From NCBI RefSeq assembly GCF_002775205.1, contig NC_036459.1, forward strand, positions 1,220,492-1,284,491: a stretch of 64,000 nucleotides of DNA, read 5' to 3'. The DNA is from Xiphophorus maculatus (taxonomy: Eukaryota > Chordata > Actinopteri > Cyprinodontiformes > Poeciliidae). The translations under genes were made by a program, and so were the position numbers. Shown here piece after piece: positions 7,262 through 64,000 of this stretch. Positions within the stretch are counted from its first letter, which is position 1. Every line of letters starts with the position of its first letter. The notes beneath the pieces were generated by a model. The model had not been told where the DNA came from and ran no database searches. It was given only the letters and a program-made list of their open reading frames with translations.

Positions 7262-7472
7262 TGTTGTTTAGGAACCAGCTGAGACCCTGAAAACACAAAA
7301 AATACACAAAATACTAAATTACTGAAGCTTGTCTTTGATTTTTTTTTTTAAACTATCATAATTAAACAAATGTTCACTATAAACAATGAATTTAGTTTGG
7401 TTTAATCTGACAGCACCCAAAAACCCATGAATGTAAAACATTTGGATAAATTGGTATTAGTTTATTCTGAAG

Positions 7473-21500: not shown

Positions 21501-22833
21501 GTGAGGTATTTATGCAACAAACTTTATAAATCTGATGTCTGAAGGACCAAAGTTTCATCTCTCTTGTGCTTCACTGTAACGTTCCCGGCTTATTTCTGTA
21601 AAATAGGCCATTGCATCACTTTTAGTCCCTTCACCAGCTGACGACAAAATGTTTTTCTTTAATAACAGGATTATATTTGGCTCTTCCATGCAGAGTTGGA
21701 CGTTTCACTATTAAGTTAAATGAGTGAAACTAATTCTTGCTTTTTTGTTTGCAGCTCATGTGTTGTGGACTCATGAATGGACCGTCAGACTGGACCAAAA
21801 TCCCAGATTCCTGCAAGTGCAACACCACTACTCCAGCTAACGGGTGCAACAATGGAAACTATAAGGATGTAAGATGACGAGATGTGAAGAAATGATGCAC
21901 TAATCTTTGAAAATTGTTTAATTTTAAGAGCTTTCTCAGCTCATGTTGTGATGAACGCGTCTTGTCCTCGTCCCGCAGCCCTGCTACGACAAAATCATCA
22001 GCTACATGAAGGACAACATGGTGGTGGCGTTGGGCATAGCTTTCGCAGTCGCCGCCATTCTGGTAAAAATGCACACACTGAGCTCTAAAGATGTCAAACA
22101 CTTAATCTCACTTAAACCATAAATATCTAACAGCAGACAGCACAATTATTCACACCACCTGCTGGTGATACTTGGTACTGCCCCAGAATCAGGTGATCTC
22201 TTCGACTTGGTCCATGTTTTTTACAGAAGAGCATTAGGGCCATTGGTTTAAAATAAAAAAATAATATATATATATACATTTTTGCTTTAAAAATTCTGAC
22301 TATTGTTTTTGCACAGAATTTGGATTTTTTCGCCTTAGAATTCTGAGATTTTCTTGGATTTGATCTCAAAATTAGTCAGATTATTATTTTTGTCAGTTGC
22401 TCTATTTCTTTTACGTTGACAATTTCCCGGCGTTTGACACTCCATCCTGATATTTTAAAGTGAAAATAACATTTTATATATTTTTTGCTGAAACTGTTTA
22501 AAATAATTTATTTAGGTTTTAATGTGAATTTTGTGCATTTTGTTTAGTTTGGTATTATGTTCCCTAAAACCGTCCCTCTGCTAGCCTCCTTCGGTCGAAC
22601 GACTCTTGGGCAGTTGTATCGGATTGATGCCAAAAGAAGTTGTTTGTATTTATTTTATTCATTTATTTTATGCTTCTAGACGCCTACAGACCTAAAAAAT
22701 CTCTTGGCCTGTCTATTTTAGTATTTCTATGTTTGTTAACTTGGTACATTTGTCTCTGCAGCTCTTCGGCATGGTCTTCTCCATGATGCTCTACTGTCAG
22801 ATTGGGAGGAAAAGCGCCGTCGACACCGCCTGA
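12572..22833 (+). CDS. tspan8: Tetraspanin-8
   Basis: Eight exons, all phase 0 with GT-AG borders: 12572-12628, 19680-19742, 19932-20051, 21255-21329, 21410-21505, 21755-21868, 21979-22062, 22762-22833. They encode 226 aa, a normal tetraspanin length. TM1 is about 10-32. TM2 (about 49-70) ends in the family GCCGA with Cys67-Cys68. TM3 is about 78-103. The large loop (about 106-187) carries Cys-Cys-Gly at 140-142, PDSC ending at Cys157, then Cys159, Cys168 and Cys177, six cysteines in all, plus an N-glycosylation sequon at Asn160. TM4 runs into [13 protein letters not shown], close to the TSPAN8 C-terminus, which is why I name it. Intron 1 is 7 kb. Tetraspanins organise membrane microdomains with integrins and other partners. 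Confidence 0.93.
12629..19679. other. tspan8 intron 1
   Basis: A 7-kb AT-rich intron. It contains a perfect-period 24-bp repeat (15376-15471) and a direct repeat of CTCAGTCTTTTCTCATTTAAT words near 16540-16590. The open frames in it carry no domain I recognise. Confidence 0.7.
15376..15471. repeat. 24-bp tandem repeat, four copies
   Basis: Four units of TTTTAATATCTGCAAATTTA plus four variable bases (ATCC, AACA, ATCA, ATCC), period exactly 24, inside tspan8 intron 1. Confidence 0.9.
20550..20990. repeat. Probable interspersed repeat in tspan8 intron 3
   Basis: A stretch with words such as CAGTTTTCTGGATGTTGTTC, CAGATTTGTGGCACATAGAA and GGGGAACCCCACATGTGA. I associate these with a repeat common in cyprinodont-type fish genomes. 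Recognition is from memory of word patterns; no second copy is in this window. Confidence 0.3.
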
Positions 22834-31600: not shown

Positions 31601-34600
31601 GTTTAGCAGAAACGTGGACGTTTCCTTTTCTCTCTGAAACAGTTTGATAAAACTGCAGCTGGGAGTCGCTGAGCCTCCAGCGGTCCCAGCTGATGGGGCC
31701 CCGCCGTTAGGCTCCGCCCCCTTCGGAAAGCGCCTTGACTCCTCTCTCTGGCTCTGCAGGTGTCTGGTGTTGTGATGATCGGTGTTGGATTCTCATCAAT
31801 TGAAGGAAACGTACCTGTTGCCGAGGTAACCATGCTGACACTTAAACACAACCTCACATTTTATGGCTTTTTTCTGCAATATTTGTGAATTTTATTGACT
31901 ATTTTATATAAATCTCGCCTCAGTTGATCAAATGAAAGAATGAAATCTAGCTTTTGATTTTTCCCTGGGTTTGTATTGAAAACATTAGAGCTAAAATTTG
32001 TTTATTTTAATGTTTTTCTGGACCAAATCAGGAAAAAATGACTTGCTAATCTGAACATTTAAGATGTCCAGTGTTTTGTTTTTACTTGTTTAGCCCTGCT
32101 TCTTTTTTCCTTTCACTCAACTTTCCATAAATATGCTTGAATACATCCAATTTCTGTGACTTACTCTTCATTTGGAGTCTCTTTGTAATTGGTAATTGGG
32201 GCCATAATTGTTTTCAAAATAATTTTTACTTGTTTTACATAACATCCTAATTTTCTAAGTTTTATATTTTTAATATTCTTAAGCCAAAATCATCAAAGTT
32301 ACTGAAATAAAATTTCCGGGTTGGTAAAATGAATCTCTCTCATATGAAGCTAACATTACCTGTATAGTTAATTCTGCCAGTGACTGTTTTTCTTTTTTAA
32401 TCTGTTTCAGTTGTTCGACCAGTTATCGATTAGCGACGACGGTGTTTTGGCTCTGCAGGTGTTCGGCCCGATCACAGTGGTTCTGTCTGTTCTGGGCATC
32501 AGTGCTGCGGTTTCAAACCACAAACTTTTGCTGCTGCTGGTAACTTAAAATATATAGTTTTAGTTGTTTTGTTTTCAACATCCACATTGTTTGGGTTATT
32601 TTTAAATATGTTTATTTTAAATATTGATTTCCAATTATTCTTCCAGCTGTTTTTAATGATATTTTCTTAGCATTTCTTTCATTAAAAATAATTATTTTAA
32701 CTTAATAATTTGATCTTCTGCAGTTTTCTGCTCTGATTTTTGTGGAGTTTGTGGCTCTGATGATCGTCGCTTCTCCGTTGGTTCACGTTGAAGCCGAGGT
32801 AACGTCTTTTCTGAGTCACTGCTGCCCCCTGCAGGGCTGCACAGGTCATTACAGTAATTTCATTTAAATTTGCATTTTAACTAAATAATCAGTTTAATAT
32901 TCAACATGTGTTCTTGTTTAGCAGATTATTGTCTAGTCTTGCAGTTTCTTCTCAGTTTGTTCACATTTATCTGGCTTTCCGGTTCCTCTCTTTGACAAGG
33001 TGTTTGCTGGTTCTGGTTCTGGTTCTGGTTCTGCAGGTGAACTTCGCTGTGGAGGACATTTTCCTGAACGTTACTCCTCTTCACAGAGCTGAGCTCTTCA
33101 TCCAGACGGAGCTGCAGAAACTCCAGACCTCAGTGAGCCACATTACTAACCAGAAATTCAGGCTTCAGTGTTTCTGTTAACTTTCATTTTTAAAGTTTAT
33201 TTTTATTTTTTCCCATTTTTCTTTAACGCATTTTTTTACTTTTATTTAATTAATTTTTTTATTTTTAAATTATTTATTTCATTATTATAATTTTTTTAAA
33301 GTATTTTATTTTTTAGCAAGTTACTCTTTCGTTTTAAGTTTTTAATATTTTTTTAAACAATTGTTAATTTTTTAATTTAAATGATTATTTTGTGTATTTT
33401 TATTTAATTTATGTTTTATTTTCAGTACTATTTTAGAAATGTAATTGCGAGTTTGCTTCCTGCTGCAACCTTTTTTTCCTGATACTGATTAGCAGTAAAA
33501 ATCATCTTCATTTCTCTGCGGTGAATATTTTGTTTCCAAGGATTCCTGCTGCGGTTTACGAAGTTTTGAGGATTGGGGGAATCACCTTCCTGACTCCTGC
33601 TCATGCTCGCCCCCTGCTGGCCTGAGGTTAGATCAGCAGCAACAATAAATTATGTGACAAATTTTAGGTTTTGGAGGAATTTTTAAATTAATTTATTCCT
33701 TAGATAAAATAAATTAAATACAGTTTATGGCATTTTGTGTAATGTATTTTTTCTCTTACCCATATAGTTTTAATACTGATTATGATGCATGAAAATAGAA
33801 ATAGAAACTAGAAGTTGAAAAATGCATTTTTATTTGGAACCAATCATGCTGAAGGAAGACAAACTTCTTTATTTAGTTCAACAGAAAAGCTAAAGGAAAA
33901 ACCTCCCAGCAAACTGACCTGGTAGTTATGATGTTTGCATAAAGCAGAAAGTTTTATGAAAGAATAAATCTATTAAAATGTCCAGGGACTCAGGAGAGTT
34001 TTGGCAAAACAGAAAATTGACATAAACACAACAAAAGTTAGAAATGTATTTTTTACTTTGCTATTCTTTTATTCAATAGTCTCACAGAGTCAGAAATAAT
34101 TAACTGTTTTAATTAGCAGGGTATACAGAGCACAGCATAACCCTAACTCTAACACAAGTTCATCACATGTAAGTAAATGCTGCCCCCTGCAGGCCACAGG
34201 CTGAATAAAGCATTTACTGCAGAACCGGGAAGGTTTCTCTCAAGACAATTAGGACCAAACTAAGGAAAAAATAACTATAATAATACTTGGACAATAAAGT
34301 CGTACAAGAATAAAACTAAGAGGATAAAATCTGAATATTTTCAAAAGAATAAAGTTAGAATTTTACGAGACTAAAGTCATAACATTACGTTGTCTCGTAG
34401 TATTAATACTTTATTCTCGTAGATATATATTTTATTTTCTTATCACATCCCTAACTCACTAACTGTTTCCTCCCCATTCCTCAGCGCTCAGACCAGTAAC
34501 TCCAGCTCACTGGGATCCTGTGTGATGACTGGAACAAACCCTCATCCTTCAGATAAACTCTGGGTTCACTCTGAGGTATCGCCGCTTCATTTACTCACAG

Positions 34601-35138
34601 ACTGTTGATGTTCTGTCCCTCCTTCCCTCTGGATCAGTTTTTTCTGTCGCTCAGCCCTGCGGTCCCATCCTGAAGAGCTACCTGGGATTCCCCATCAAAC
34701 TCCGGATCGGAATAATCTCCGCCTTCGCCACCATCACGGTAAACCTGCAGCTTCTAGTTTCTTCCTATTATTATTTTCACCGTCTTATGGAGCTAAAAAA
34801 CTGAAAATATGACATTCAAAATGTCACAAAGTGAAACTGGATTCTGTCTGATGGTCTTATACATTTAGATAAATATCTACGTTTGGAAATTTGTTTTACA
34901 AAAAGAGGATGGGAAATTATTTTACAATTTTAAAAAACAAATTGATTCCAACCTAATGACAAGAAAAAAACAGATGTAAAACCATAATTCTGGTTCTTTT
35001 ACTGTCATTTTGTGAAATTTAATGCAAATATTTCTGGAGAAAAAGTGAAAAATTGTTAAAAATTGAAAACTGATGAAAATGTTGCATATTTCTAAAAATA
35101 TCTACATTATGATGATTCATCAGTCATTTCTTGAGGTT

Positions 35139-35204
<66 letters not shown>

Positions 35205-35331
35205 GTAGATAACCGCCATCATTCTGTGCCTGGTTCTGGGTCTGGAGGATCTCTGGAAGAAGCCTCCGGTCGAGACGACGGTCGACGACTTTAACAGAGT
35301 CAAATACCAACCCAAACCTTCCCTCTCCTGA
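28642..35331 (+). CDS. Divergent tetraspanin (tetraspanin-8/CD63-like), gene B
   Basis: Nine exons: 28642-28701, 31760-31825, 32411-32539, 32724-32798, 33037-33132, 33541-33626, 34485-34575, 34655-34738, 35209-35331; 269 aa. The loop motif Cys-Cys-Gly is at 145-147, then LPDSC (Cys162), Cys164, Cys183 and Cys203, six cysteines in the large loop, with sequons at Asn121 and Asn176. TM2 ends VLGISAAVSNHK and lacks the usual Cys-Cys after it. Intron 6 is phase 2 (AG joined to C gives Ser171), unlike all other introns in the array. The cytosolic tail is long (about 28 aa) and ends VKYQPKPSLS. The acceptor of exon 9 is a TG microsatellite. Exon 3 could instead start at 32459, but 32411 fits family length better. 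Membrane scaffold role by family. Confidence 0.87.
29270..29445. mobile_element. Fish DNA-transposon-like repeat fragment
   Basis: It contains CCACAGCATGATGGTGCCAA followed by CGCCATGTTTTACC, preceded by ACCAGCTTCCTCATCCCTCC. These words are typical of a very common teleost interspersed repeat that I recall as DNA-transposon related. No coding potential remains. Confidence 0.45.
31215..31330. repeat. Teleost ACTCAAGTAAAAGTA interspersed repeat
   Basis: TTTACTCAAGTAAAAGTAAA, then ATTACTCTAGTAAGAGTAAA, then AAGTATTCAGGTACTGAGTA: a familiar fish repeat. A related stretch with GTAGTGGAGTAGAAAGTAGA is at about 43310-43375. Confidence 0.55.
33009..33033. repeat. (GGTTCT)4 repeat at gene B exon 5 acceptor
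   Basis: Four GGTTCT units run directly into CTGCAG at the 3' splice site of exon 5 (33037), so the tract before the exon is a hexanucleotide repeat. Confidence 0.85.
34270..34440. repeat. Degenerate AATAAAGTCGTA array in gene B intron 6
   Basis: Units such as AATAAAGTCGTACAAGAATA and TTAATACTTTATTCTCGTAG, the same dispersed family as 5045-5540. Confidence 0.6.
35142..35203. repeat. (GT)31 microsatellite at gene B exon 9 acceptor
   Basis: A perfect GT run of 62 bases, followed by only TGTAG before exon 9 starts at 35209. It replaces the polypyrimidine tract. Confidence 0.95.
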
Positions 35332-37809: not shown

Positions 37810-38798
37810 ATTTCCCTTTTAGCTGCTGCCACTAAATGGGGTCACTGGTTTTGCTACCAGCATGACTTGCAGAAATAATCTGACTTGATCAGCAGCAAGA
37901 AATGTTTTTGAGCCAGTCGCTGTCTCTCTTCATCTCCACCTGTTAGCAGATTTTTTATTTTTTTGTTGCTGGTGTGGAAACCACATTCAGACAGACGTTA
38001 ACATTTTGTTAACATTTCCTCTTTAAACAGCCAAACTGTTGTAGATTTTGCTCTTTACAGCTTTAAACCACTAAAGAAAACATTTAGAAGCAGCTTAACA
38101 TATTTTTTATTATATTCTGTAACTTTGCCAAAAAAAATACGTACATTTAGAGAACAAATGTTTTTATTTAGCCAAAACATTTAATAAAAACAAATGTTTT
38201 TATTTAGCCAATATTTATTTATTGGCTAAATAAAGTCTGTTAAAAACAAACTGTTTGGGTTTTCAGTGTTTCACCTGTAATAACAAATTATCAGCATTTC
38301 TGAAAGGAAAATTTTAGATACTTTTAAACCTACAACTCCCAACCTTCACAACAAAACAACCAACCAAACTGTCAGAAACAAAAACAGTTTAGTTTTTTAG
38401 GTAGTTAGGCATGTTAAAATTAAAATAATCAAACAAATGTAAATTCTCATCTGAGCTTCTAAAATGTATTTGATGTTGGTGTCAGTCTAACATTTTTATC
38501 TCGTCTATTAATGTGTCCAAAATGATTTTGTCCGTCTTGCCAGTTGTTGTGTATTATTGTTAAAAATATTTCTTTAATTTTGCTTGAAAAAGTTTTGAAG
38601 TGTGGAAATGAAATCCTCAAATGAAAGAGGTCGTTCACTGCTCTAGTTTATGTTTTATTTTGACACTTCCTCTTGCTGATCATTGGTCGGTTTCACTGAT
38701 TGGCTGCAGAATTGCTCTTTATGTGACTCACTCACCTTCGTCTCTGCACAGTTCAGTTCTCTCCGTCTCTGCGGTCTAGTCAAAGTAAGACAGAAAGT
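37810..38798. repeat. Duplicated upstream block (matches 60280-61111)
   Basis: It shares with the region before gene E, in order: GTCACTGGTTTTG, GCAGAAATAAT, ATCAGCAGC, CCACATTCAGACAGACG, TTTGCTCTTTACAGCTTTAAACC versus TTTGCTCTTTGCAGCTTTAAACC, AGAAAACATTTAGAAGCAGC, GAGAACAAATGTTT, TGGCTGCAGA-TTGCT and CTAGTCAAAGTAA-ACAGAAAGTATGG. This shows that C and E were copied with at least 0.8 kb of upstream DNA. Confidence 0.8.
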
Positions 38799-41700
38799 AT
38801 GGAAAAAAATAACTGCTGTCTGAAGAATGGTTTTGTATTTTTCAGCTGTGTTTTTGGGGTGAGTAAAATACCTTTGATTTAAATTAATTGATTATTTTTG
38901 CTAAAGTTTATATAATGTTCATTAAGAAGAAACACTTTGAGGCCAGCAGGTAAAAATAACCAGAATTTTGCTTTTCATGGCAAAAATGCTAGAAAGAAGA
39001 GGCAGAAATAAAAATATCAAAATATCCATTTACTATTATTTTGATGTCTACGTACTGATATTTATGTTAGATTATTTTATGATGCCTGAAAAGCAGAGAG
39101 ACAGTCCTGGCCTTTCTGTCGATTTGTTTAGTGTAAGAATTTATTTATTTTAAACTGAGTTCATGTATTGAAATATGTATAATTTTTCAACATCAGCAGT
39201 TTTGTCCAGATTTTTGAGGTGTTTGAGTCACTTATTTTTCATATAATAAATGTTTTATGTCCAGCATCGTTCAGTTTGTGTCGCCCTCTAGTGTTTAATG
39301 CAGAAACTACACAATTTCTTATGCAAAAACGAAACATAAGAAATTACCTTTTTTAAACTAATTTATTTAAAAACCTGCCTTATGTGGATCAAATATGTGA
39401 CTCACCAAGTAAAATTATTACGTTCTAAAATATTGAATTATATCTAACACATGATGATTTCTTTAATATTCACAATTTTATTTTTGGAAATGTGATTTTT
39501 TTAAAATAATTTCTTTGATTTTCCTTGTTTTTGTTGACTAAATCTATGCATAACTTCTTCTTTAGGTTTTTGGGATTCTCTTTATTTGCCTGTTATACAG
39601 AACTGGAACCGGGAAACTGGTAAAACACACAACAAGCTTCACTGTTAAATCTTCACATTTAAAGTCCTAACAGTCACTGTTTCAGAAGAATATTTACTAC
39701 TTGAGGAGATAATTCATATTTTTAAATGAGATCCTGTGAGTATTTGTGTTCAGTATGTAACCTGCTGTCCATAAATGTTTGTATCCTTTATGTCTACACA
39801 TTTGTTTGACTGCAAACCTTCAGAAAAGTTAATTTAAATCGTCTCTTCAGACTCACTTTAGTCCAGACTTTATCACACTGGTCTGCAAACTTTAATAGAG
39901 CAGAAAAGGATTTTTTGTTTCTGTCAAAGCAACTCGTGTATTTTTTTCTTTAATTGTGCTTCTAAATTACCGATAAACATAAAATGTTATTAAGGCAAAC
40001 ACTTATAGTACATAGCAACTTCTTTTTTGATTTCCATGTGTTTGACATCATTGAAAAGCTTAGAAAAAACTCAGAACGCCACAAATAGACTTGATAATGA
40101 CAATAAGTGACGATAAGAGACTAATAATTTCATTTCCGGTTGTATATATTGAGATGTTGTGTTATTGTGGGGTAATTACGTGAGTGTTTGTGAAATTTAA
40201 GGTCCTGATGAAGTTTGAGAAACGCTGCTTTAGTCCAGCGATTTAAAGTTTCTCTGATGAACTAGAACATCTAATAGTTTTTGGTGCAGTTAAACTTCTA
40301 CTTTGAATGAAGGCCAATGATGCCAAGATCAACTGATGGGAAGATACTGACTTCTAATCTGGCGCCACATAACCTGGTTGCAGAATTGGATGGACGGATG
40401 TTCATCATGTTATGTAACAATCAGCTTCAGCTGTAAGTTTTGTGTTTTTGCTCTCACTGATCAGATGGAAGAACTGAACGCCCCCATGATGACGCGGCTC
40501 TGGGTGTTTGCCATCGGCCTTGTCCTGATCTCCATTTTTGGCAGATGTGCAACATGGACCAAGAGTAAATGCTGCTTCATAGCTGTATGTGCACCAGTTC
40601 AAGTATTTCATTCAAATAAAAAACAAATGTAAAATTAATTTGATTGTTTTCTGTGCAGTTTGCAGTGATCAACGGCGTCGGAATGGTCGTCATGATCGTC
40701 TTTGGGATTAATGTTGCTGTTTTAAAAAGCCAGGTAATTTACTGCCTGCTTTGTTTGCTGCAGGAAAGATAAAGTTATTGTGGCAGATCAGTCTGGGGAG
40801 CAGGCATTGAGCTGAAACCAGACGTTTAATAAAAAGACAATAAAACACATTAAATATTATATAAAAAAGAGTTTTAAATGTAAAAGTCGTGAAATGAATA
40901 CACAGTCTCCCATGATTCCAGTTAATGAAGCTGCAATGACTAAACTTAAATTTAATTTTTCTGTTCTGGATTTCCTGATTTATGTTTGTGTGAATTTACT
41001 TTTCACACAAAGAAAATTGGCTAAAATAATTTTATCCTTCTTTTCTGTTTAGGTCATGGAAAAAGGTCAAAGTGCTGAATTTGCCAAGGAGATCCTGAAA
41101 AACGACGCAAAAAAAGAATTGCTAAAAACCCGGCAAGAACATGTAAGACCAAAGGGCTCCCCCTGGTGGTGTTTTAAAGGAGGCACACAAACATTTTTAA
41201 TTAAAGGCGTGATGGATGCTACTTCTTCTGGACAAATAATTATATAAAAGTGAAAGCATCTGTTACGGTTTTGTCTCGTGTTTCAGCTTCACTGTTGTGG
41301 ATGGACTGGAGTCCAGGACTGGGGTTCAGACATCCCTGACTCTTGTCACTGTATAGACTGCAAACCTTCACATGAATGTAAACCCAGCCCACAGGTGAGC
41401 TTAAAAAGGTTTAACAATTATCATGTAAAAAAATCTTATCTGCAAATCTTTGAAATAGTTTTTTTCTGACAGGGATCCACCAGGCCATCACACGTCTACT
41501 CCAAGGTATTCAGTCAAACACCCGACTAATTTAGCTTCACCTTTCTGTCACATCTCCAGCCTGCAATCCGTAACTTTCTCCCCACTTTCTCTTCTGCAGC
41601 CGTGTGGAGAAATCATTGGAGCTGATGTTGAACATGTGGCAAATATTGTTCTCGGCATCTTTTTTGGATTTGCTGTAGCTGCTGTAAGTTTCTCATATTC

Positions 41701-42698
41701 TCTTGTTTTAAACTGTTAAATGATGTGGAACAAGTCAAAAGTAAAATATGACCAGATAAAAAAATATCACAGCTACTGGAAAAACGTACATAAAAATGGA
41801 GGCAGAGCAGGAGTTCATCTGACAGATTGGACTGTGAAAATAAACTCAGACCATCAGGATCTGAGAACGTCTTCATCTGTTTGATTCCCCTGGATTAAAA
41901 AATAAAAGACTTTCAGAACAAACTTCTATGACTATCTACATATTGTATGAAAATACCCAAGTAAAAATACAGATTTCCAGAAACAGTCTGTATTACAGCA
42001 TATCTGAAGAAGCTTCTGACTGAAGACACTCTGCCTTCCCATAAAGAGGATGTTCAGGGTTTTCCATAATTTTCTTGATTTTATATAAAGTTCTTTGCAT
42101 CATCGTCTCCAGAGGTTCCACAGTTTCTCCCAGGACTGAACCAGCCTTCTTTATCAGGTTGTTGAGCCTCTTTTAGTCCCTGGTTCTGCTGCTGTTGCCC
42201 CGACAGATGATGGCAGAAGAGATGACGTTCAACAACAGACTTAGAGAAGATGTAGCTCCATGAGGCTGGCAGAGAGCGATCCGATCCGTAGCCTCAGCCT
42301 GTAGGGCAGCTTCAGCTTCCTGTGGCCACTTTCTCAGTCTTTCCTTTACAGGTTGTCTCTGAATAAGGTCGTTAAGTTATGAGCAGAGAAAAACACGGTT
42401 TATAACATACTGTCATCCATTTACCGTTGTTAAAAACTTGGGTTTTTAACAGGTATGAAGCCTGAATGTTTCTTTAAGCAGAGGCGTTTTAGCAGGACGA
42501 CAGAAACGTGAAAATCAAGAGCAGAAAACTTCTGTTTAGCACATCGTATTGTGAGAATAGAAACTTCCTTTTTCTGATCACTTGTTTATCTACTTGCTCT
42601 TTCAGATGATGAGTTTGATCATCGCCATCAAAATGATTACGCAGTTCAGTCGTCATGACAACGTCGGAGAGCCAGATATTGAAATGAGGGTTTATTAA
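38799..42698 (+). CDS. Tetraspanin (tetraspanin-8/CD63-like), gene C
   Basis: Nine phase-0 exons: 38799-38858, 39566-39619, 40465-40584, 40659-40733, 41053-41142, 41287-41394, 41473-41505, 41600-41683, 42606-42698; 238 aa. TM1 spans exons 1-2; TM2 lies in exon 3. After TM2 the usual Cys-Cys-Gly is replaced by SIFGRCATWTKSKCC. The large loop has Cys-Cys-Gly at 136-138, DWGSDIPDSC (Cys153), Cys155, Cys158, Cys164 and Cys182, seven cysteines and therefore one unpaired. Exon 7 is a 33-bp mini-exon (GSTRPSHVYSK) shared with D. TM4 is in exons 8-9 and the tail reads SRHDNVGEPDIEMRVY. The start is set by MEKNNCCLK, equivalent to MGKINGCLK in D and E. Intron 8 carries a LINE relic. Likely a plasma-membrane or endosomal scaffold. 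Confidence 0.9.
42000..42290 (-). mobile_element. LINE (non-LTR) reverse transcriptase 3' fragment
   Basis: In gene C intron 8 the minus strand reads a degenerate C-terminal segment, for example LLLNVISSAIICRGNSS, a stop, then KRLNNLIKKAGSVLG, and later KKIMENPEHPLYGKAECLQS. The Leu-Asn-x-Leu-Ile-x-Lys-Ala-Gly-Ser-Val and Asn-x-x-His-Pro-Leu pattern is typical of the C-terminal region of fish Rex/CR1/L2-like LINE proteins. It is broken by stops. A small related remnant is at 54990-55070. Confidence 0.6.
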
Positions 42699-52853: not shown

Positions 52854-53328
52854 ACTTACTGATTTGTGACTTTACATTCTGGAGGTTTTTGAAATGACTC
52901 ATTTTCCAGACACCAAAACTTTTTATCAATAACTAGATTGCTGATGATTTTATTGTTTTTAGAAGCAGCAGAAACCCACACAGAGATTTTCCAGCCTTTT
53001 TTCCTGCACTGGTTTACAATATTTAGTGTGTCTGTGTTATTTTAACATTTCTGCAAACAAACTTTTTAATTCAGCTTATTTTCAAGCTGTTTAAATGCTA
53101 AAGACAATCAAGAACCAAACTGTTTGTGCAGCTTTCTGTTTCATTTTCTGTTGCTTTGCTGAGTCTTGATGGGTTCGTACCTAAGCCTTAGAGCCGCTTG
53201 TGCTGATTGGCTGCTGTATTTCCACCCAGACACTCAGACTCTCTGCAGGAGCGTTTGAACGTCACACCCAAACTGCATCTGATCAACCGCTCTGCTTCTC
53301 CTCTTCAGTGTCGAAGTGAACAGAAAAG

Positions 53329-53870
53329 ATGGGGAAAATAAACGGATGCCTCAAGTGCCTTTTTATCTTCTTTAATGTGCTGTTTCTAGTAAGTAAAAGT
53401 TATTTTAAAAATTTTTTTCATGTTTTTGCATCTCTAAAATCTTAATTTTTAGTAATAATTAAGTTTTAATAAAATGTGTTGATCAACAAGAAGAATCAGG
53501 TTTTTTTTTAAAAATAACACAAAAAGACAAAAAAGTTGTTTTTGCTCTTTTATTTTTATTTTGCAGTTTTAGGCTTCTTTGAACTTTTGCTGTATTATTA
53601 GTCATAAAATGTATTATCAGTCATTTTATATTAATTATCCTGCATTGGAAAAATATGAAAGATTTTGGATTTCTGGAGTATGGAAAATGTACAAATTGTT
53701 CTTGATTCACCTTTCAAACTTATATGTTTCTGTAAAACTTGTAATTTGTTAAATTAGATCTTAGTTGCAATTTAATTATTACAGTTAAAAGTTACATAGG
53801 ATGAACAAAGTACATGATGTTCTGATGTGTAAAATGTCCACTTTGTGTCCAGTAAGCAGTGACTTCCAGT

Positions 53871-53950
<80 letters not shown>

Positions 53951-56900
53951 AGGAGGGGGTGTGTGCGTGGGTGTGTGTGGGTTGGGGGTCCTGTTACTCT
54001 CCGCCCATCAACCCTCCTGTTGTTTTCTCTCTCTAACGGTATTTTAATGCTTCCCGTTGAAGACTTTATGTTCTTTCGGTTTCCTTTCGGATGAAACGGA
54101 GAAAAAAGAAAGAAAGAAAAAGTTTGGAGTTTGAGAAATCTTGGAGAAAAGTTTCAGAAAGTTTTTTGGTGCAAGAATAAAACACAAAAACTTAAAAAGT
54201 GAATTTATAAAGTTTTTTGTAACTTTTTTTTTGTTTCTTTGATTAATTATATTTCTCCCCCGCGCCTTTTTAATTTTTTTTTTCATCCTCCGTTCCCGGC
54301 ATTTTTCTGAAGCTGCGTCATTTCACACAGTCGCCCATTTTCTGCTCTCTGCCGCCCTCTCGTGTCCTGCAGCCAAAATTACAGCAGAATTTATTACGCC
54401 TAAAATAAACTATTAATCCCCTAAAACCAGGATTCTTCACTTTTTTTGTTCTAATAATTTATTAATAAAATAAATGAAAAGATGAAAAATATGTTTAATT
54501 TATAATTTTGTCATCAAATGAAACTTTTTTTGTCTCCCTTTCATATGAGGAACTTTTTGTGAATTTCAAATGAAGCAAAAATTGTTTAATTTGTGTTCAG
54601 TTGAGTTTTTCTTTCTATCCCAGATCATCGGATGTGTGCTGATATACGTGGCAGTGCAGGCCACTGCTATTTCTATCCAGGTAAACTATGAAAATATCAT
54701 ACAATTTAAATTATTTAGAGTAAAAGTCTCAAATATATACTTCCTGTTTTGATATGGTAAAAAAAAAAGAACCAAGTAGTTGCATCTAATCCTGTGCATT
54801 AATGTAATGACAAGCAACCTGGAGCTAGACACTCCAAACCAACAGGGGGCGCTCCAGAGCGCAATGTGTTTCACACAACTACAATTGACAATTGTCATAT
54901 TATAAAAATAAAGTAGCAATAATACAGAACAAAGTTGTAATATTACAAGAATAAACCAAAATGTTGTGACTTTATTCTCTTATTATCCTGGCTATGGGCA
55001 GAAGAAACCTCCTGTAGCAGTCTGTGTTACAGTGAATCTGAAGAAGCCTCTTACTGAAGACAGTCTGATGTCAGTTTTTTTATTTGTTTTAGTTTTATAT
55101 TTAGTTTCTAGTGGACTTTGGTTCACTGTGGTTGTTTTTAAATCTCTTTTTGACTCGAACTGAACTGGATACTTTGAAGAAACTGTGATTAATCGTTTAA
55201 AGTTTTGCTGTGACTCGTTTCTTTGCTTCCCAAACGATCAGATGTCGACATTCGGAGGCCCGGGCGTGGGCTGGATCTGGGTCATCACCCTCGGCGTCTT
55301 CGGCATCTCCGCTCTGGGAATCTTCGCCGCCTGCTCAGAGAAGGAGCTTTTCCTCAAAATCGTACGTAGAAAAGTCTGAATCCTACAGAAAGATGAGATG
55401 AGGAGTCAGCAGAGCGCGACCTGAACTTGTTTTGTGCAGTTTGCAGGTTTCATGGGGATTGGGATGATCATCATGCTGATCTTTGGGACTGTTGTGGCTG
55501 TTTTGAGAAACTCGGTAACCTGCTATAAACCCCTGGTTCATTATGAACTTCAGTTTGGTTTTATGCTAACAGAGTTTTGATTTTTATCTTTTAGCTGAAA
55601 CAAAACTTTGACAGTAAAGCCAAAGAATATGTCGAGCCTCTCATGAAAGACGAAGAGTCGCGGCAAAAGCTGGAGGAATTCCAACTGACAGTAAGACTGG
55701 ACTCTGAATCCGTCCTCATGCTCTGGATGTCTGACGTTTTGTGCAGAAGCCTCCAGTAAGGCGTGTGTGTTTGCAGTTCCAGTGCTGCGGCGTGGTGAGC
55801 GCCGAGGACTGGGGCAGAAAAATCCCAGCCTCCTGTCAATGCAGCAACACCAACGGACTCTTCAGACCCTGTAAATCCAAACCTGCGGTACGTCGGGCGG
55901 GAAACGTGTTCAGGGCCATACAGAGGCATTTTATTTTATTTTATTATTTCATCAGCTTTATCTTATTTATTTATAATTATTTTATAATACTTAATATTTT
56001 TTAAAAAACATTTTTAATAGAATTTTATTTACTTATTTTTACATGAATCTCATTTTTAATTCTGGCCTTTTATTAATTTATTGAAACAATTTTTATTATT
56101 CACAATGACTTTAACCAAGAGGAGTGTTTTCTCTAAACATGAAGGCCTTTTGTTCTACTTTATTTAAACGTTTTAATTGGTTTTATTTTATTTTTTATAA
56201 ATTTATATTTTACTTATTGATTTTATTATTAATTAATTATTTTTTATTTATTACATGAATTTCTTAATTCTGGGATTTTAACCATTTTTAAAATTTGTCC
56301 TTTTAATTCACACAAGTGCAATGATGTTAAATAGCAATATTTTTTAATGAATATATTTTTCATTTTATTTTTATTATTGATATTTTTCATCAGATTTCTT
56401 ACAGTTTTTAGAAAATGCTGAAATCTGTATTTTCATGGTGTTTCTGGTTTCTGTGTGAATCTTCTGAACGTCGTCTTGTTGTTTTCCTGCAGGGATCTTC
56501 AGGACCGGATCTGATCCACTCTGAGGTATTAATTCAGATGATCAACAACGTTCTGCTCATGTTGGGCCAATTCGGGCCTCTGAACATAAATTTCCGCCTA
56601 AAAATCTCAGAAATTTTCTAGAAAAAATTTTGTTTTTGCAATGATGCCAGTTTGCTAGACAAACATTTGAGATTTTCTGTAAAGAACTTGAAACATTTCT
56701 AGGAAAACGTGAAAATTTTGAGTTTTTAAAGTCACAAATTTGCTAGAAAAATTTTTTGGAAAACTTTTGTTTCAAAATTGCAAATTTTTTACGAAAAACT
56801 TGGAATTTTTCAAGAAATGGAACCTGGTAATTTTCTAGAAAACACTTGGTAATTTTCTAGAAAAAAAATGAAATTCTGAGATTTAAATATTACAAAATAG

Positions 56901-58729
56901 TTTGAAAAAAAAATCAGAAATTTTCTAGGACAGAATTGGAAATGTCTGAAAAATGGCTAATTTGCTAGAAAAAAACGGAGAAAGTTTCTAGAATCGAACT
57001 GGGAAATTCTTGGCAGTTTCAAAAGTTGCAAAATTTTTTTACTTCTGAAACCAAAATTTTCTTTCTGAAAAAATTCTGAGATTAATCAGATATTTCTCTT
57101 CACCAACTTTTGACTTTTTAAACTGAAAGATTTTCTTGCTTCTTCTAATAGTAGAAAATGTTCAACTTTCCAAAGTTTGCACAAGTTTTTCTAGAAAATG
57201 TGAAATTTACCTAAAATGTCTGTTTTCTAACCAAATTTCCACCTTTTCAAACTGAGGAAATTCCTTATTTTTCATAGAAATTTTCAGACTTTTTTTTACT
57301 CCTGTTTTTTCTGTCTGAACGGCTCTGATATCCTGTCGAATGTTTAAATCTTATTGTTTTATTTCCGCCTCTCTCCTCTGCAGTCCTGCAGCGGCAGCAT
57401 CTTTTACTTAGTGGACATTGTATTCAAGGTCTGCCTGGGCTTCCTGTTTGGATTCGCTGTCACTGCAGTGAGTCCCACTGATGGTTTCATTTATAAAATG
57501 ATTTCTTGCCAGCATGTGGTTGTGCAGCAGAAACTATAAAACAACTGCAGATGCAGTTTCCTGCCAACAAGCGGCAGAGTTTCACAATTTATTGTGATTT
57601 AAACAGGTTTTTAAAAAGTACAAATAGAGGATGAGGACTCGGCCAAGAAAGATCAATAAATAAAGTTAAGAGAATAAAGTCATAAAATGATGATATTACC
57701 AGAATAATGTCATAATGTTGGTAAAAAGAAAAAAAAGGAAATATTTAATCTTTAAAAGCATCAGATTATGAATATCAGACTGTGTCCTGATCACTGATGG
57801 TTTGTTTTTTTAAATAATTTTGATTAAAATCACTAATTTTGTTGAAGTAAGTTAGAAATACCTGCAAGGAATTTTGTGACGTGACTCCGCAGGAAGATGT
57901 TTAATAATAAGAAGGAAAAGCAGCTTCAGAACCAGAAAATAAAAACTCTTCATGAGGTAAATATTCAGGTTTTTAATCATTTTGACCTTAAGTTGATAAG
58001 TAAGTTTAACAGAGTTTAAAAGTAAAGTTGTTTACAGCTAAACTATGCTAAGCTAAACAGGCTAAACGTGAGCAGAAAAATAAGGCCGTTTTCTCAGGAC
58101 GGCCACCAGGAGGCGCTGTGGCCTCTGAAAAACGAAACAATTGAATCCCTTAAATTTTTCATCACAATTTTTGTTTCCTGTTGTTCAATCAATTTCAAAA
58201 ATAAAACGTGAGTTAAAATAATTGATTTAAATGTTATTTCTGACGCCAGCAAAGCAGCAAAAAATGGAAAAGTTGACAAGAAAACAACCAAAGAAAAAAA
58301 CCTGAGAACAATGTTAATAAAATAATATTTGATGTGATTAGCATAAAATATTACATATTTTCTTATAATCAAAAGAGGATTGTGTTGAAAATTGTATTAT
58401 CTGGTAACAAAGTTATAATAATCTGATAGTAACATTTAATTTATGTTAATTAGATGTAATATATATGAAACGGTGAATAAAAACATTCTCAAAGTTGATG
58501 TTTCTTTACATATTAGGGGTTAATACTCATTGGGGGCATTAAAAACAAATTTATTGCTTATTTTTGGTGCAGAATCGAAACATGTGACCTAATTATTTAA
58601 GTATGTTTTAATTTCTGAGTTTGTTTGTCCTTCCAGCTGTTGGGCCTGCTGATCTCCATCCTGATGATCCATCAGGTCAGACGTCACGACGGCATGGGAG
58701 GGCCGTCCATCGCCATGAAGGGCTACTGA
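53329..58729 (+). CDS. Tetraspanin (tetraspanin-8/CD63-like), gene D
   Basis: Nine phase-0 exons: 53329-53388, 54624-54680, 55242-55361, 55440-55514, 55595-55690, 55777-55887, 56493-56525, 57384-57467, 58637-58729; 242 aa. It opens MGKINGCLKCLFIFFNVLF, a classic tetraspanin N-terminus with likely palmitoylated Cys. TM2 is in exon 3 and ends ALGIFAACSEKELFLKI, without Cys-Cys-Gly. TM3 is in exon 4. The large loop has Cys-Cys-Gly at 139-141, DWGRKIPASC (Cys156), Cys158, Cys168 and Cys186, six cysteines. Exon 7 is the 33-bp mini-exon GSSGPDLIHSE. The tail is RRHDGMGGPSIAMKGY. GATTGGCTG, an inverted CCAAT box, lies about 130 bases before the ATG and is also seen before gene C. AATAAA occurs at 59293-59298 and 59532-59537. 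Confidence 0.92.
53389..54623. other. Gene D intron 1
   Basis: 1.2 kb with a (TG)n tract at 53874-53949 and a GAAA-rich patch near 54100-54120. No exon-like sequence is seen. Confidence 0.7.
53874..53949. repeat. (TG)38 microsatellite in gene D intron 1
   Basis: A 76-base perfect TG run followed by G-rich GGAGGAGGGGGTGTG. Confidence 0.95.
56590..57290. repeat. Degenerate AATTTTCTAGAAAA array in gene D intron 7
   Basis: Most of intron 7 (56526-57383) is built from imperfect TTTTCTAGAAAA palindromic words spaced about 25-40 bases apart. A shorter block with the same word is at 47440-47600. Confidence 0.65.
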
Positions 58730-61111
58730 AGCTAACCTGACCGTTAGCCTCTGAAATGTAACCCGGGACTCAGAGTCGGTTTTTATCATTTAACTCATCC
58801 TGAGAGGAAACGTTTCCTCTTTGTTTGTATCACTGATTTTTGTATGAACATTTATTTTTTTACATCTTTATGTTTTGTTGCTGAATTGTATTAATCTGTG
58901 AAATGCAGAAAAAATCTGAATATTTCCATCATCATCCGCAGCTGGGAGATGAAAACATTTAAATTCAAGAATTATTTAGAGAAACTACGACCGTGGGATT
59001 AATGTTTTATGCATTTTGGGGCCTGAAACTTGCAAACAACTTTTTATAAGTTGGCAAAACAATCACTAAAGCAGATTATATAAAATCTTCAGTCATTTTG
59101 ATGGAATAATTTTTACAACATAATGACTTTAAAAGTACCAGTAACATTTTTACATCTATTTTCTTATTAGTTTGTTGGAAATAATGTATTTTTTTATTAT
59201 TTTCTTACATCATTTTTCAGAAATTTCTACAAAATCTATCCACCCTTTTTGCAAAATTTGTATTTTTCTTTACTTTAAAACCTAAAAATCTAAATAAAGT
59301 GGTGGTTGTTAAAAAATGACAACAAATTTCCAACAGTAAAAATGAAATATTATTTTTATTTTAAAATCATTTGTGGCCTTTTGGGTCGTTTTGCTGGATG
59401 TTCACCTGATAAAAACGAGACAAATCTGTTTAAGCTTTAAAGTTTTACTAATTATGTAAATGGATGTTTTAAACTCCTTATGAAACCAAACATTTCCACT
59501 ATATTCTGTAAAAGTATTGCACTTTTTTAAAAATAAAAGCAACATTTCCACAAGTTTACTTGATATTGTGTTGAATCTAAATATTTATGACTTCTTAAAT
59601 GAAAACATCAGTTTTTCAAAATTATTGTGGTTTCTTATGTAAGAGATTCACACAAAGAAAAAATGTTTTCATTGCTTCTTAAAGTTCTTTTCAGATCATA
59701 TTCCTCTGAGTTTTGTGAATAAATATGCGTATGATTGCATCTATATGTGAAAAATAAATAACAAATCAGAGTTGTATTTATTACATAGAGCCAAACAATA
59801 TTAATTTACTTAATTTATTGTTTTAGGTTCTCATTTATCTGGAGAGGCATCAAACAAACAAGCATGAATATCATAAAAATAATTGGAAGAAAAGCATTTA
59901 TTGATCATAAATTATCAGAAACTGAAGTTATTTTCCTTCACTATGATTTTATATTGATTGGCTTCTGGAAACTTGAGTTTATTTTGTAATTGTATTGTAG
60001 AAAGTCCAACGTCTCTGTGCTGTAATTCTGCATAAATGATCCAGAGGGAGCAGATGCTAAACCTCACACATAAAAATTATTCAATAATTCAATCTAATCT
60101 CTCAGTTATTCAAACAAAACAGATTCAGTAAAACTAAGAAGTAAATTTTAGATTCATCCCTGAGTAGATTAGTCAGTTATTGCTTTATTTTGAGCCATGA
60201 AAAGGGAAATAATTCATATTATTCATGTTAATGGGTGAAAAAGTAATTTCTCATGAACATTTGACTTTTCGTACTTCTTCCCTGGAAGCTACCATAACTT
60301 TAGGTCACTGGTTTTGTTACGGCCATAATAAATAATAACTAAGTGCAGAAATAATGTGACTGCATCAGCAGCCAGAGAGGTTTTGGGGTCGGTGTCGCTC
60401 TCTGTGTCTCCAAATGTTTGCTTTTGATGCTGATGTGAATCCACATTCAGACAGACGGTCATGTGCAGAACTTCACATTTCACTGTTTGGAGAAAGAAAT
60501 TCATTTTCATTTTGCTCTTTGCAGCTTTAAACCCTTTGAGAAAACATTTAGAAGCAGCACATCATATATTTTATTATATTTTAGAGCTTTACCAATATAA
60601 AAGAAGAATATTTGGAGAACAAATGTTTATAGGTTGTGTGAACTGACCTTTGAACTTGTACTTTTATTCTTATAAAGTCTCTTTGCTCAGAGCAAAAGGC
60701 CAATTTATTTAGCTAAATCTTTATAAAGATTAACATCAATTGTCAAAATACCAGAAAACACATCAAAAATACATGATTTATTGCTTCAATGCAAATTAAA
60801 ATAAAGAATATATTGAATATTAAGAAGGTTAAAAGATTACAGTTCTGACATTTGAATTTTCAATAAAAAATAAAACAATGAACCTGAAAAATATGTTTTT
60901 GTAATAGAAAAACAAAAATAGCAAGAGGTTAAACAGCAGAGAAAGATAAAAAAAATCATTTTTTTATGCTTCCTGTTGCTGCTTCCTCATTTCACTGACT
61001 GGCTGCAGATTTGCTTTAAAAGCCGAAACGTTTCTCTGCAGACGCTTTAAACTCAACATCACTTCTGTTCTCTCTGCCTTTCAACTGTCTAGTCAAAGTA
61101 AAACAGAAAGT
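58730..61111. other. Gene D 3' UTR and intergenic region to gene E
   Basis: 2.4 kb. The first 0.8 kb is probably D's 3' UTR, with AATAAA at 59293 and 59532. From about 60280 it is the block duplicated before gene C. CTTTAAAAG near 61014-61022 is a TATA-like box about 90 bases before E's ATG. No other gene is seen. Confidence 0.65.
60280..61111. repeat. Duplicated upstream block of gene E
   Basis: Partner of 37810-38798; see that entry for shared words. It runs up to the E start codon. Confidence 0.8.
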
Positions 61112-63229
61112 ATGGGGAAAATTAACGGATGCCTGAAAGTTTTGTTCATCATCTTCAATTCTTTGTTTACAGTAAGTAAAATAATTTTGTAAGTAATTGA
61201 TCATATTTGTGAGGAAATGTTCTTTCCAAAGTTAATTAAAGTTTTTATAATGTTTCTTAACGTGAGAAACTTTGTGAGGCCAGCAGGTAAAATATTTAAA
61301 ATAATTTTTAAAATGCTTAAAAAGCAGTAACTGGAAATAAAACTAGTAAACTGTTTACTTGTGGTTATTTTGTTTAGTTAATAATTACATGTTAATATTT
61401 CTAAGAAATTTATTTGTTTTTAATGTAAATTCATTTTATACTGTTACTGTAGATTCTAGATCAAATTAATCATTTCTGTCCACTTTAATCATTAAACTGT
61501 TAATTTAATCTTGACTGCAGTTAAAGGTGATTAACATTAATTTTACATTAATTAAATCTTTTTATGTCCGGTATCCTCTGGTTGAGGTTTTAGTTTTATT
61601 TTGCTCTCTAGTGTTTTAATGCAGAAATTACAAATATGTGAGAAAACATTCATTTTAAAAGTATTTATTTAAGAATCCACCATAAAATGATCCATTTATG
61701 CTCTGAGATGTGAAATCAGCTTATTTGGACCTGATGTGGATCAAATCCTGCGTCCTGCGTTCACTCATAGAGACTATTATGATCTTTATGTGAACATCTT
61801 TCAGTGTTTTTATGATATAAATAACAGGAATGTATTTGTTGAATAAACCTTTCCTCTTTTCTTCAGTGTTTTGGGGCCTTGATGATGTACGGTTTAGGAC
61901 GCATCGCGGCCAACGGATACCAGGTAAAACAAACACAACTCTGGTTAAAAATGATTTCAGAAGGGAACCAGGTATAGTATCTGTTCACAGAGAGAGAAAT
62001 AGATGTGGGTGATGTTCTGTAACAATCAGTTTGCTGTCTCGTTTGTTTTTGCTGTTTTGGATCAGATGGGAGGAACGGGCAGCCTGAACATGATCACAGG
62101 TTGGATTTTTGCCGTTGGCGTTGTTGGAATCTCCTTGCTTGGGAGCCACGGAGCGCGCACTGAGAATAAATGCTGCCTCACGGCTGTACGTACAGCATGA
62201 TTCACACAACACAAAGCTAAATTAAAATAAATGATTTACAGTTTATATTGTTTTCTGTGCAGTTTGCAGTTTTCATGGGGATCGGATTGGTTCTCATGCT
62301 AATCTTTGGAGTCGCTGCCATTGTTTTAAAAAAACAGGTAATTACTAAAAAGTTCATGTGGTGCAGAAAATGGACAGAGTTCAAACGGGTCGTCTGAGAT
62401 GCTGCAGGTTCTGTTGGTTGAGCATCAGCGGTGTCTGCTCAACCAACTGAACCACTGCAGAACCACTGCAGAACCACTGCAGAACCCCTGCTCCTGCCCC
62501 TGCTCCTGCTCCTGCCCCTGCTCCTCCTGCTCCTACTCCTCCTCCTCCTCCCCCTGCCCCTGCCCCTGCTCCTGCCCCTGCTCCTCCTGCTCCTACTCCT
62601 CCTCCTCCTCCCCCTGCCCCTGCCCCTGCTCCTGCCCCTGCTCCTCCTGCTCCTACTCCTCCTCCTCCTCCCCCTGCCCCTGCCCCTGCCCCTGCAGTGG
62701 TTCTGCAAACTGCGGTTTGGTTAACTCAGACCACAGTAAACAGTCTGACAGCTGCAGGCCACACTGTTTGGTGCATCCAATCACTAAATAACGATGAAAT
62801 TAGTCTCTTTGTTTCTGTCAAGTGTCAGAACACAAAACGTTGATTATTAGGAACACCCTCACTAAAGCACTCCACACCAAAGCAATGCAGATATCTCCGG
62901 TAATGACAACAGTTCTTGCTCTGGATTCACAACCTGCAACCTATAACTTAATAACTCACCTTCTGTTCTTCAGTATTGCCGTGAAGCTGAGGGGAAATGT
63001 GAAGCCGAGTTTCTCTTCAACATTAGCATTGGGGTCAATTTTGGATTTGCTTTCGTTGCTGTAAGTTTTGGTCATATTCTTTTACCACCATCATCTTTTT
63101 GTTCTCCTGTCTCTTCTAACCAACTTGTTCTTCCAGATGATGGGTTTGATCATTTCCACTAACATGATTAATCAGATCAGTCGTCACGACAACGCCGCAG
63201 TGCCAGCTATTGCAATGAGGACTTATTGA
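61112..63229 (+). CDS. Tetraspanin with missing large loop, gene E (possible pseudogene)
   Basis: Six clean phase-0 exons: 61112-61171, 61867-61923, 62066-62185, 62263-62337, 62974-63060, 63137-63229. Joined directly they give 163 aa. Exons 1-4 encode MGKINGCLK, TM1, TM2 (followed by SHGARTENKCC) and TM3 ending IVLKKQ. The last two encode YCREAEGKCEAEF, TM4 and the tail SRHDNAAVPAIAMRTY. These equal exons 1-4, 8 and 9 of C and D. The three loop exons that should lie at 62338-62973 are not intact. That span holds a C-rich minisatellite and a relic of the Cys-Cys-Gly exon. Either the gene is decaying or it makes a four-pass protein with a loop of about a dozen residues. Flanking splice sites and all six exons show no stop or frameshift. 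AATAAA is at 63598-63603 and 63756-63761. Confidence 0.75.
62481..62697. repeat. C-rich 60-bp minisatellite in gene E
   Basis: Units starting at 62521, 62581 and 62641 are near identical over 60 bases (CTCCTCCTGCTCCTACTCCT, then C/CT runs and CCCCTGCCCCTGCCCCTG). They are preceded by CTCCTGCCCCTG words and by (ACCACTGCAGA)3 at about 62451-62485. The minus strand has repeated GGGGCAGGGGCAGGGG followed by GGGGG, a G-quadruplex pattern. The 60-base period is a multiple of three and open in several frames. Confidence 0.9.
62709..62792 (+). pseudogene. Relic of gene E large-loop (Cys-Cys-Gly) exon
   Basis: One frame reads ANCGLVNSDHSKQ, then SDSCRPHC and LVHPITK before a stop. It lines up with the loop exon of D (QCCGVVSAEDWG, PASCQC) and of tspan8 ([18 protein letters not shown]). 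The first Cys of Cys-Cys-Gly is Asn, the Trp after Asp is His, and the acceptor AG that should precede it is missing: the nearest CAG, at 62695-62697, is out of phase. A weak donor GTGCAT starts at about 62774. Confidence 0.6.
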
Positions 63230-64000
63230 CCAATCAAGAACCTCCGAGTCTTGATGGGTTTTATGGAATGATGGAAGAATATTGTTCAGGTTTTCATGCT
63301 ATTTGTTTTGCCTTTGCATTGGTAAAAATGTTGCCACATAAAAATGTTTTGCTAAAACTGATCCCACATTTTCTCATGTTGTTACCGTAAATGTTGTGTT
63401 TTATTCTGATTGTTTGTGATCAGTTTTCAACGTTTCACACAAGCTTCATGTTCCCACAGCTGCTCTCAGTTTTCCTTCCCTTTTTCTCCTACATTTTGAT
63501 TTTGATTTTGGGTTTAGATGAAACTTTAAAACTCACCACAGGTTGAGGCTGCAAACATTTAACACATCCTGTCAAAAACAGTTACATAAAGTTTTCTAAT
63601 AAAACAAACCTCCACCTACTTACTTAATGTCTTTTTTTTCTTTTAATCTACTTTACTAAATTTGTAACAAAATCTATAAATTAAATTACTATGGGCATTT
63701 GTCCATAGTTTTCTTTCTATTTTGTTCCTTTGTGTTTCTGGTCTTTATTATTGCCAATAAAGGTTTTACTCTGAATCATTCCTTTGTGTTTCATTTCTTA
63801 CTTATTTCTTGTCTTCTTCCCTCTGTGACATTTGTTTTATGCTGTTGTATAAATGTGAGACTTTTTAAATTTTTCATCTGTAAATCATTTTGAGTCTTAG
63901 CTGAACTCCCAGTTGGTTGTTGATTAGTTTCCTTCTCAGGTTTTCTGTTCGTTACTCAGCCTTAGATTAGACTCACCTGGATCCAGTCTGGATCTCCAGC
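63230..64000. other. Gene E 3' UTR and downstream
   Basis: The 3' UTR probably ends after AATAAA at 63598 or 63756. Sequence to the window edge shows no exon I recognise. Confidence 0.6.

What the first reader, a model, noticed from the sequence alone, without database searches (positions are those of the whole stretch)
62338..62973. Gene E: a tetraspanin whose large extracellular loop has been lost while the rest stays intact
Seen: exons 1-4 and the last two exons match C and D exon for exon, with clean splice sites and open frames. The three loop exons are absent or broken. Known: all introns in this subfamily are phase 0, so joining exon 4 to the TM4 exon keeps the frame. Inference: the gene either just lost function or makes a four-pass protein with a minimal second loop, which would lack the part that binds tetraspanin partners. 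Intact flanking exons argue against long neutral decay.
Basis: partly seen in the sequence, partly recalled or inferred. Interest (0 to 1): 0.8.

Follow-up and report, generated by a model that had tools for sequence, protein, structure and literature searches.

The report
Fish tetraspanin gene missing its loop
In a row of duplicated fish membrane-protein genes, one copy lost in a single DNA deletion the three coding pieces that make the large outer loop, yet the rest stays readable and in frame, so it may still make a four-pass protein without the part that normally grips partner proteins.

Summary
Gene E keeps exons 1-4, 8 and 9 with ten GT/AG splice sites, all phase 0, open for 163 residues. 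Loop exons 5-7 are deleted, not broken. The proof is an intact sister, gene F, 9.6 kb beyond the window: E 62338-62437 and 62697-62916 match the front of F intron 4, and 62935-62973 the end of F intron 7. One deletion of about 1.08 kb removed exons 5-7; the minisatellite lies in the intron 4 part, away from the joint. The product would be a four-pass protein with a second loop of about 15-20 residues and no CCG motif. E was neutral for at most about a quarter of the time since its split from F. Outside exon 8 E changes like F (41 v 39 changes); in the loop stub it is 14 v 1. That favours early loop loss with the rest kept by selection, but dN/dS does not exclude neutrality. Closest precedent: human CD53 isoform 2, made by splicing (PMC6773723, passages). 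No RNA or other fish was available.

The parts
61112..61171 (+). gene E exon 1 (start codon, first half of TM1)
   Evidence: 60 nt, donor gtaagt; 48/60 identical to F
61867..61923 (+). gene E exon 2
   Evidence: 57 nt, ttcttcag/gtaaaa; the least conserved exon (33/57 with F); not recognised by C or D above shuffles
62066..62185 (+). gene E exon 3 (small loop end, TM2, inner loop)
   Evidence: 79/120 identical to F
62263..62337 (+). gene E exon 4 (TM3)
   Evidence: donor gtaatt; 64/75 identical to F
62338..62973 (+). hybrid intron: front of intron 4 joined to the end of intron 7, exons 5-7 deleted
   Evidence: 62338-62437 = F 1295494-1295588, 62697-62916 = F 1295579-1295783, 62935-62973 = F 1296865-1296901 of contig C17
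62493..62695 (+). CT-rich minisatellite, 60-bp unit x 3.4, inside the intron 4 part; not at the deletion joint
   Evidence: a repeat type found at many places in the genome (63 matches listed, 1 of them the locus itself; a lower bound)
62917..62934 (+). deletion joint (about 1.08 kb of F-equivalent sequence missing, F 1295784-1296864)
   Evidence: exact base not resolvable at this divergence
62974..63060 (+). gene E exon 8: loop stub (62974-63012) and TM4 start
   Evidence: stub 14 E-specific against 1 F-specific change of 36 sites; one added codon, put at the second Cys by the aligner
63137..63229 (+). gene E exon 9 (TM4 end, C-tail, stop)
   Evidence: 81/93 identical to F
38799..42698 (+). 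gene C, paralog with all nine exons
53329..58729 (+). gene D, paralog with all nine exons

Best explanation
E is a tandem sister of the intact gene F in an array of at least seven TSPAN8-like tetraspanin genes (A-G). One deletion of about 1.08 kb, from within intron 4 to near the end of intron 7, took out exons 5, 6 and 7, that is nearly the whole large extracellular loop. Because the flanking introns are phase 0 and the exon 4 donor and exon 8 acceptor survived, exon 4 should splice straight to exon 8, giving a 163-residue four-pass protein whose second outer loop is only about 15-20 residues, with no CCG motif. Shown: anatomy, homology, the deletion, the open frame. Inferred: the splice itself; that the loss came early on the E branch and the protein has been made and selected since, because outside exon 8 E changes at the pace of its intact sister while the loop stub (the end of the lost loop) runs free. 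Likely action, by analogy with CD53 isoform 2: it reaches membranes and enters tetraspanin assemblies without bringing a loop-bound partner. Probability of the anatomy about 0.95, of the maintained protein about 0.5.
For: Homology of both arms of the hybrid intron to F introns 4 and 7: 74/92, 152/183 and 31/36 identical; 0 of 273, 276 and 284 native control windows, and none of 200 shuffles each, score as high. Intact frame and ten splice sites; P(intact) 0.0445 if 25% of the E branch was neutral, 0 of 4000 trials if all of it was. E-specific against F-specific nucleotide changes (C as reference): 41 v 39 of 399 sites in exons 1-4 and 9, 7 v 3 of 48 in the TM4 part of exon 8, 14 v 1 of 36 in the stub; Fisher p 0.003 for stub against exons 1-4 and 9. 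Amino-acid changes at sites where E and F differ: E 21, F 20. Under a shared E/F clock, exon 8 carries the excess dN/dS: E 1.46 v F 0.22 (lnL -358.12, -362.70 if equal); other exons 0.61 v 0.49 (-1598.12, -1598.34 if equal). Four hydrophobic segments remain. CD53 isoform 2, with its loop deleted by splicing, reaches the plasma membrane, less efficiently (PMC6773723, passages).
Against: Over all six exons dN/dS of E is 0.77 (clock) or 0.56 (no clock) and 1.0 is not rejected (lnL -1963.85 v -1964.39; -1963.07 v -1964.39); for F under the clock it is 0.41 and 1.0 is rejected (-1968.49), though not without the clock (-1963.32). Outside exon 8 too, 1.0 is not rejected for E (-1598.12 v -1599.51), and without the clock the exon 8 fit is uninformative (E 0.65, F at its bound). 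Changes polarised by C = D show no third-position excess in E (9, 12, 11; F 10, 5, 7), and E has 9 unique departures from residues shared by the other three against 5 in F. Fits made before F was known (C, D, E, with or without A) put E at 1 or above without a clock. The stub was marked off after I had seen the alignment, is 36 sites, and changes faster than the neutral rate (14 seen, 7.6 expected), so something other than relaxation may add to it. The codon data barely resolve E/F/C (lnL -1963.07, -1963.38, -1963.17). No RNA, no second species.
Confidence: 0.5

Rival explanations
1. E is a freshly dead copy. It was an ordinary tetraspanin until the deletion removed its partner-binding loop; it is now a young pseudogene that has not yet gathered stops.
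For: Loss of the loop would be expected to remove the main binding function (PMC7228769 passages: chimeras without the CD81 loop do not export CD19). Up to about a quarter of the E branch could be neutral without a visible lesion. dN/dS of E does not reject 1. Tandem arrays turn genes over (recalled, established knowledge).
Against: Recent death does not explain why only the loop stub is fast (14 v 1) while exons 1-4 and 9 match F (41 v 39). Not decisive: the stub could have been fast before the deletion.
Confidence: 0.36
2. The deletion is an assembly error or is confined to the sequenced individual (a copy-number variant); the species has an intact gene E.
For: A repeat array lies in the same intron, and only one assembly was seen.
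Against: The joint is in non-repeat sequence outside the array; the assembly is 704 Mb in 101 contigs with contig C17 of 20.6 Mb, and the window has no N. A search with the exon 4-8-9 protein found only E and one exon of F at E <= 0.001, but that search also missed C and D, so it is weak evidence against a second, intact E elsewhere. The stub pattern suggests an old loss.
Confidence: 0.08
3. E uses a new, cryptic loop exon from the hybrid intron, for example 62408-62770, 363 nt, open and phase 0, which would put a Cys/Ser-rich repeat-coded loop in place of the old one.
For: Three phase-0 open candidate exons of 9-400 nt exist above the score floor used.
Against: Their splice sites score -1.0 to -3.5, against medians of 4.7 (acceptors) and 2.3 (donors) for the modelled sites of genes A-E on a recalled consensus matrix; the weakest real sites reach -2.6 and -1.5, so this is not an exclusion. 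The array is open in several frames by composition alone. No Pfam match for the ORF 62342-62791 that contains the example.
Confidence: 0.04

Closest known systems
Human CD53 isoform 2 (splice form lacking exons 6-7; PMC6773723)
   Same: Nearly the whole large extracellular loop is missing and the four transmembrane segments are kept; the tagged protein reaches the plasma membrane, less efficiently than full CD53 (passages).
   Different: There it is a minor splice form (5% of the conventional form in natural killer cells) of a gene that keeps its loop exons; in E the exons are gone from the DNA, so the loopless form would be the expected product. CD53 is another tetraspanin lineage (recalled).
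TSPAN8 / TSPAN8-like tetraspanins (pattern CCG--[DN][WY]--PxxCxC--C--GC; PMC2965184 passages)
   Same: The CCG exons of paralogs A, B, C, D and F show the first part of this pattern, CCG to CxC, and E shares the exon layout of C, D and F.
   Different: E has no CCG exon and none of the loop cysteines except those in the exon 8 stub.
Tandem-array pseudogenes with internal deletions
   Same: A tandem copy with a multi-exon deletion (recalled as a common kind).
   Different: No stop, frameshift or broken splice site was found in what remains, and the deletion itself keeps the frame.

Membership tests
Tetraspanin (Pfam PF00335) | Profile match above the curated cut-off | tested here: met
   36.8 bits against 32.1, but only residues 8-106, profile 1-105 of 225 (TM1-TM3); C 88.1 and D 97.5 bits over nearly the whole profile
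Tetraspanin (Pfam PF00335) | Four transmembrane segments | tested here: met
   four 19-residue segments with mean hydropathy 1.94-2.82; topology itself not measured
Tetraspanin (Pfam PF00335) | Large extracellular loop with CCG motif | tested here: not met
   no CCG exon between exons 4 and 8; the region is intron 4 joined to intron 7
Tetraspanin (Pfam PF00335) | Descent from a tetraspanin gene (exon layout, phases, introns) | tested here: met
   exon-by-exon match to C, D and F; intron homology to C and F
Pseudogene | Stops, frameshifts or broken splice sites in what remains | tested here: not met
   none in six exons and ten splice sites
Pseudogene | Neutral evolution (dN/dS = 1) | tested here: inconclusive
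   E 0.77 (clock) or 0.56 (no clock); 1.0 not rejected; outside exon 8 0.61 v F 0.49, 1.0 not rejected
Pseudogene | No transcript or protein | not testable with these tools
   no RNA data on hand

The most novel reading that the evidence does not exclude
A long-maintained 'mini-tetraspanin': a gene that lost its large extracellular loop early, by one frame-keeping deletion, and has since been held by selection as a four-pass protein with a hairpin loop of about 15-20 residues carrying two cysteines (Cys-x6-Cys, the second apparently gained in E) that might form a cap of its own. It would act inside tetraspanin assemblies as a partner-less filler or competitor.
Probability: 0.42. Interest if true: 0.6.

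Novelty: new variant of a known kind. Interest (0 to 1): 0.42.

Why it matters
The large loop is held to contain most of the sites by which tetraspanins bind partners (PMC7228769 passages; [quoted passage not shown] A gene that natural selection kept after deleting the loop would be a natural test of what the rest does by itself, with an intact sister (F) nearby for comparison. If E is instead freshly dead, it is an ordinary step in the turnover of a tandem array, but a clean, fully mapped one.

Tried and rejected
Exon 5 and exon 6 'remnants'. A TSPAN8-type (gene A) exon 6 peptide scored 45 at 62711-62758, 0 of 200 shuffles, the best match to that query in the window outside the paralogs' own CCG exons, and C exon 5 scored 30 near 62366 (3 of 200). 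A profile of the four paralog CCG exons gave the fragment only E 1.3, and its ORF did not appear in the whole-window profile list. F then showed that this DNA is intron 4: I take both as chance. A match of C intron 4/exon 5 to 62765-62908 was no better than native windows (125 of 316 reached its score), nor was one to gene B (160 of 316).

Minisatellite as the agent that destroyed the exons: rejected, the array lies inside the intron 4 part, away from the joint.

dN/dS with C, D and A only gave contradictory values for E (0.52 with a shared C/E clock, 4.4 without); superseded by the fits with F, whose unfavourable results are given in the Against line.

Viral and prokaryote collections: no relative confirmed (494 pattern matches, none confirmed; 112, none confirmed); an exact 46-base pattern from the hybrid intron had no match in viral contigs. 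Rfam at gathering thresholds: none in 53000-64000. PDB by sequence: none for E at E <= 1.

Papers: 8 searches listed no paper that I recognised from title and abstract as describing a tetraspanin gene lacking the loop exons in the genome; I saw passages only of PMC7228769, PMC2965184, PMC6773723 and PMC6895871, nothing more of the rest than the listings.

Full report
What is there. The window is C17:1220492-1284491 of a 704 Mb genome in 101 contigs, which I take to be a teleost fish (inference from the genes; no species name was available). It holds five tandem tetraspanin genes on the + strand, A (12572-22833, its first exon assigned by motif only), B (about 31760-35331, first exon not found), C (38799-42698), D (53329-58729) and E (61112-63229), and two more lie beyond it: F (C17:1294117-1298253), 9.6 kb past the window's end, and G (about C17:1315723-1320686, seven exons modelled). 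A matches CD53, CD9 and CD81 best among solved structures, and its loop begins like the TSPAN8 cysteine pattern given in PMC2965184; the name TSPAN8 is my reading.

Gene E. Six exons are intact: 60, 57, 120, 75, 87 and 93 nt, ag/GT bounded, phase 0, open from ATG to stop, 163 residues.

What happened to the loop exons. Searched with C and D, the CCG exon was absent as protein (26 and 24 against 77 between C and D), but the test had no power for exons 5 and 7, which C and D hardly recognise in each other. Gene F solved this. It is intact over nine exons and close to E: 130 of 486 coding sites differ, against 162 of 483 for F/C and 181 of 483 for E/C (counts summed). E 62338-62437 aligns to the start of F intron 4 (74/92 identical), E 62697-62916 to the next stretch of F intron 4 (152/183), and E 62935-62973 to the last bases of F intron 7 (31/36). 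No native control window scored as high (0 of 273, 276 and 284), nor any of 200 shuffles each. So F-equivalent 1295784-1296864, 1,081 bp with exons 5, 6 and 7, is missing in E as one piece. F exons 5-7 score 73, 145 and 32 (protein) in C but 22, 26 and 21 in E.

The repeat array. The 60-bp CT-rich minisatellite (62493-62695) lies inside the intron 4 part. It is of a kind found on many chromosomes of this genome: 63 matches to the 636-bp query were listed, 1 being the locus itself, and the other 62 fall within query positions 147-358, the array and a few bases before it. That search scored 40 of 58 candidates and did not report even the homologous intron of F, so it does not show that the rest of the hybrid intron is single copy. 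The deletion joint lies about 220 bp downstream of the array in ordinary sequence, so a collapsed array would not hide the exons.

Has the rest been kept? From 1118 aligned noncoding E/F sites (identity 0.679, distance 0.419, 22 frameshift-type gaps of 32) I took the neutral E branch as half of that, 0.210 substitutions per site. Simulated, the start, frame and ten splice sites of E survive with probability 0.29, 0.082, 0.0445, 0.0025 and 0.0000 (4000 trials each) if 10, 20, 25, 50 and 100% of the branch were neutral. E is unlikely to have been dead for more than about a quarter of the time since it parted from F.

Was the loop lost early or late? With C as reference, E has 41 and F 39 own changes over 399 sites of exons 1-4 and 9, 7 and 3 over the 48 sites of the TM4 part of exon 8, but 14 against 1 over the 36 sites of the loop stub in exon 8 (Fisher p 0.003 for stub against exons 1-4 and 9). 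Codon fits under a shared clock agree: E and F are alike outside exon 8 (0.61, 0.49) and differ in exon 8 (1.46, 0.22; twice the lnL difference 9.2). Free drift of just the piece that belonged to the lost loop, with the rest kept, is what an early loss with a still-selected protein predicts. Weak points: I chose the stub after seeing the alignment; its pace exceeds even the neutral expectation (14 against 7.6, P 0.023); without the clock the exon 8 fit says nothing (E 0.65, F at its bound); over all exons the dN/dS of E is 0.77 with the clock and 0.56 without, and 1.0 is not rejected either way, nor outside exon 8, while E exceeds F under the clock at twice the lnL difference of 4.5; changes polarised by C = D show no third-position excess in E; the order of the E/F/C splits is barely resolved by codons and rests on the intron 4 homology and distances.

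What it would do. The product keeps four hydrophobic segments, and the stretch between the third and fourth shrinks from about 100 residues in C and D to 20. Pfam still recognises it, through TM1-TM3 only. CD53 isoform 2, whose loop is removed by splicing, still reaches the plasma membrane though less well, and its authors propose assemblies lacking a partner (PMC6773723 passages); CD81 needs its loop to export CD19 (PMC7228769 passages). E would be the genomic, permanent version of that isoform. Whether it is transcribed is unknown.

Verdict. Observation confirmed, with the mechanism established as one frame-keeping deletion. E is a tetraspanin gene by descent whose predicted product fails the CCG/large-loop criterion. 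Maintained loopless protein about 0.5, freshly dead copy about 0.36, assembly or private deletion about 0.08, new cryptic loop exon about 0.04.

Noticed in passing
window 33541-33626 and 34485-34575 (gene B): Gene B reads best with an 86-nt CCG exon and a 91-nt next exon, that is a phase-2 intron, unlike the phase-0 introns of C, D, E and F. Its first exon was not found.
   Followed up: partly
window 2012-2353, 5595-6692, 6938-7267, - strand: Two PYRIN-domain ORFs and a TRIM coiled-coil/PRY/SPRY ORF lie upstream of the tetraspanin array, looking like fish innate-immunity genes.
   Followed up: no
window 60499-60588 against C about 38035-38123: The DNA upstream of E and C shares a block of 49 and 48 matches per 60 alignment columns, above their introns 1 and 3 (0.59 identity): a possible common promoter or enhancer.
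   Followed up: no
L006-L008 (C17:1294117-1320686): The array runs on past the window with F (intact, nine exons) and G, which keeps a CCG exon; exon 5 of G was not located and its exon 8 not modelled.
   Followed up: partly
window 62493-62695: The CT-rich minisatellite type occurs on many chromosomes of this genome (63 matches listed, a lower bound).
   Followed up: no
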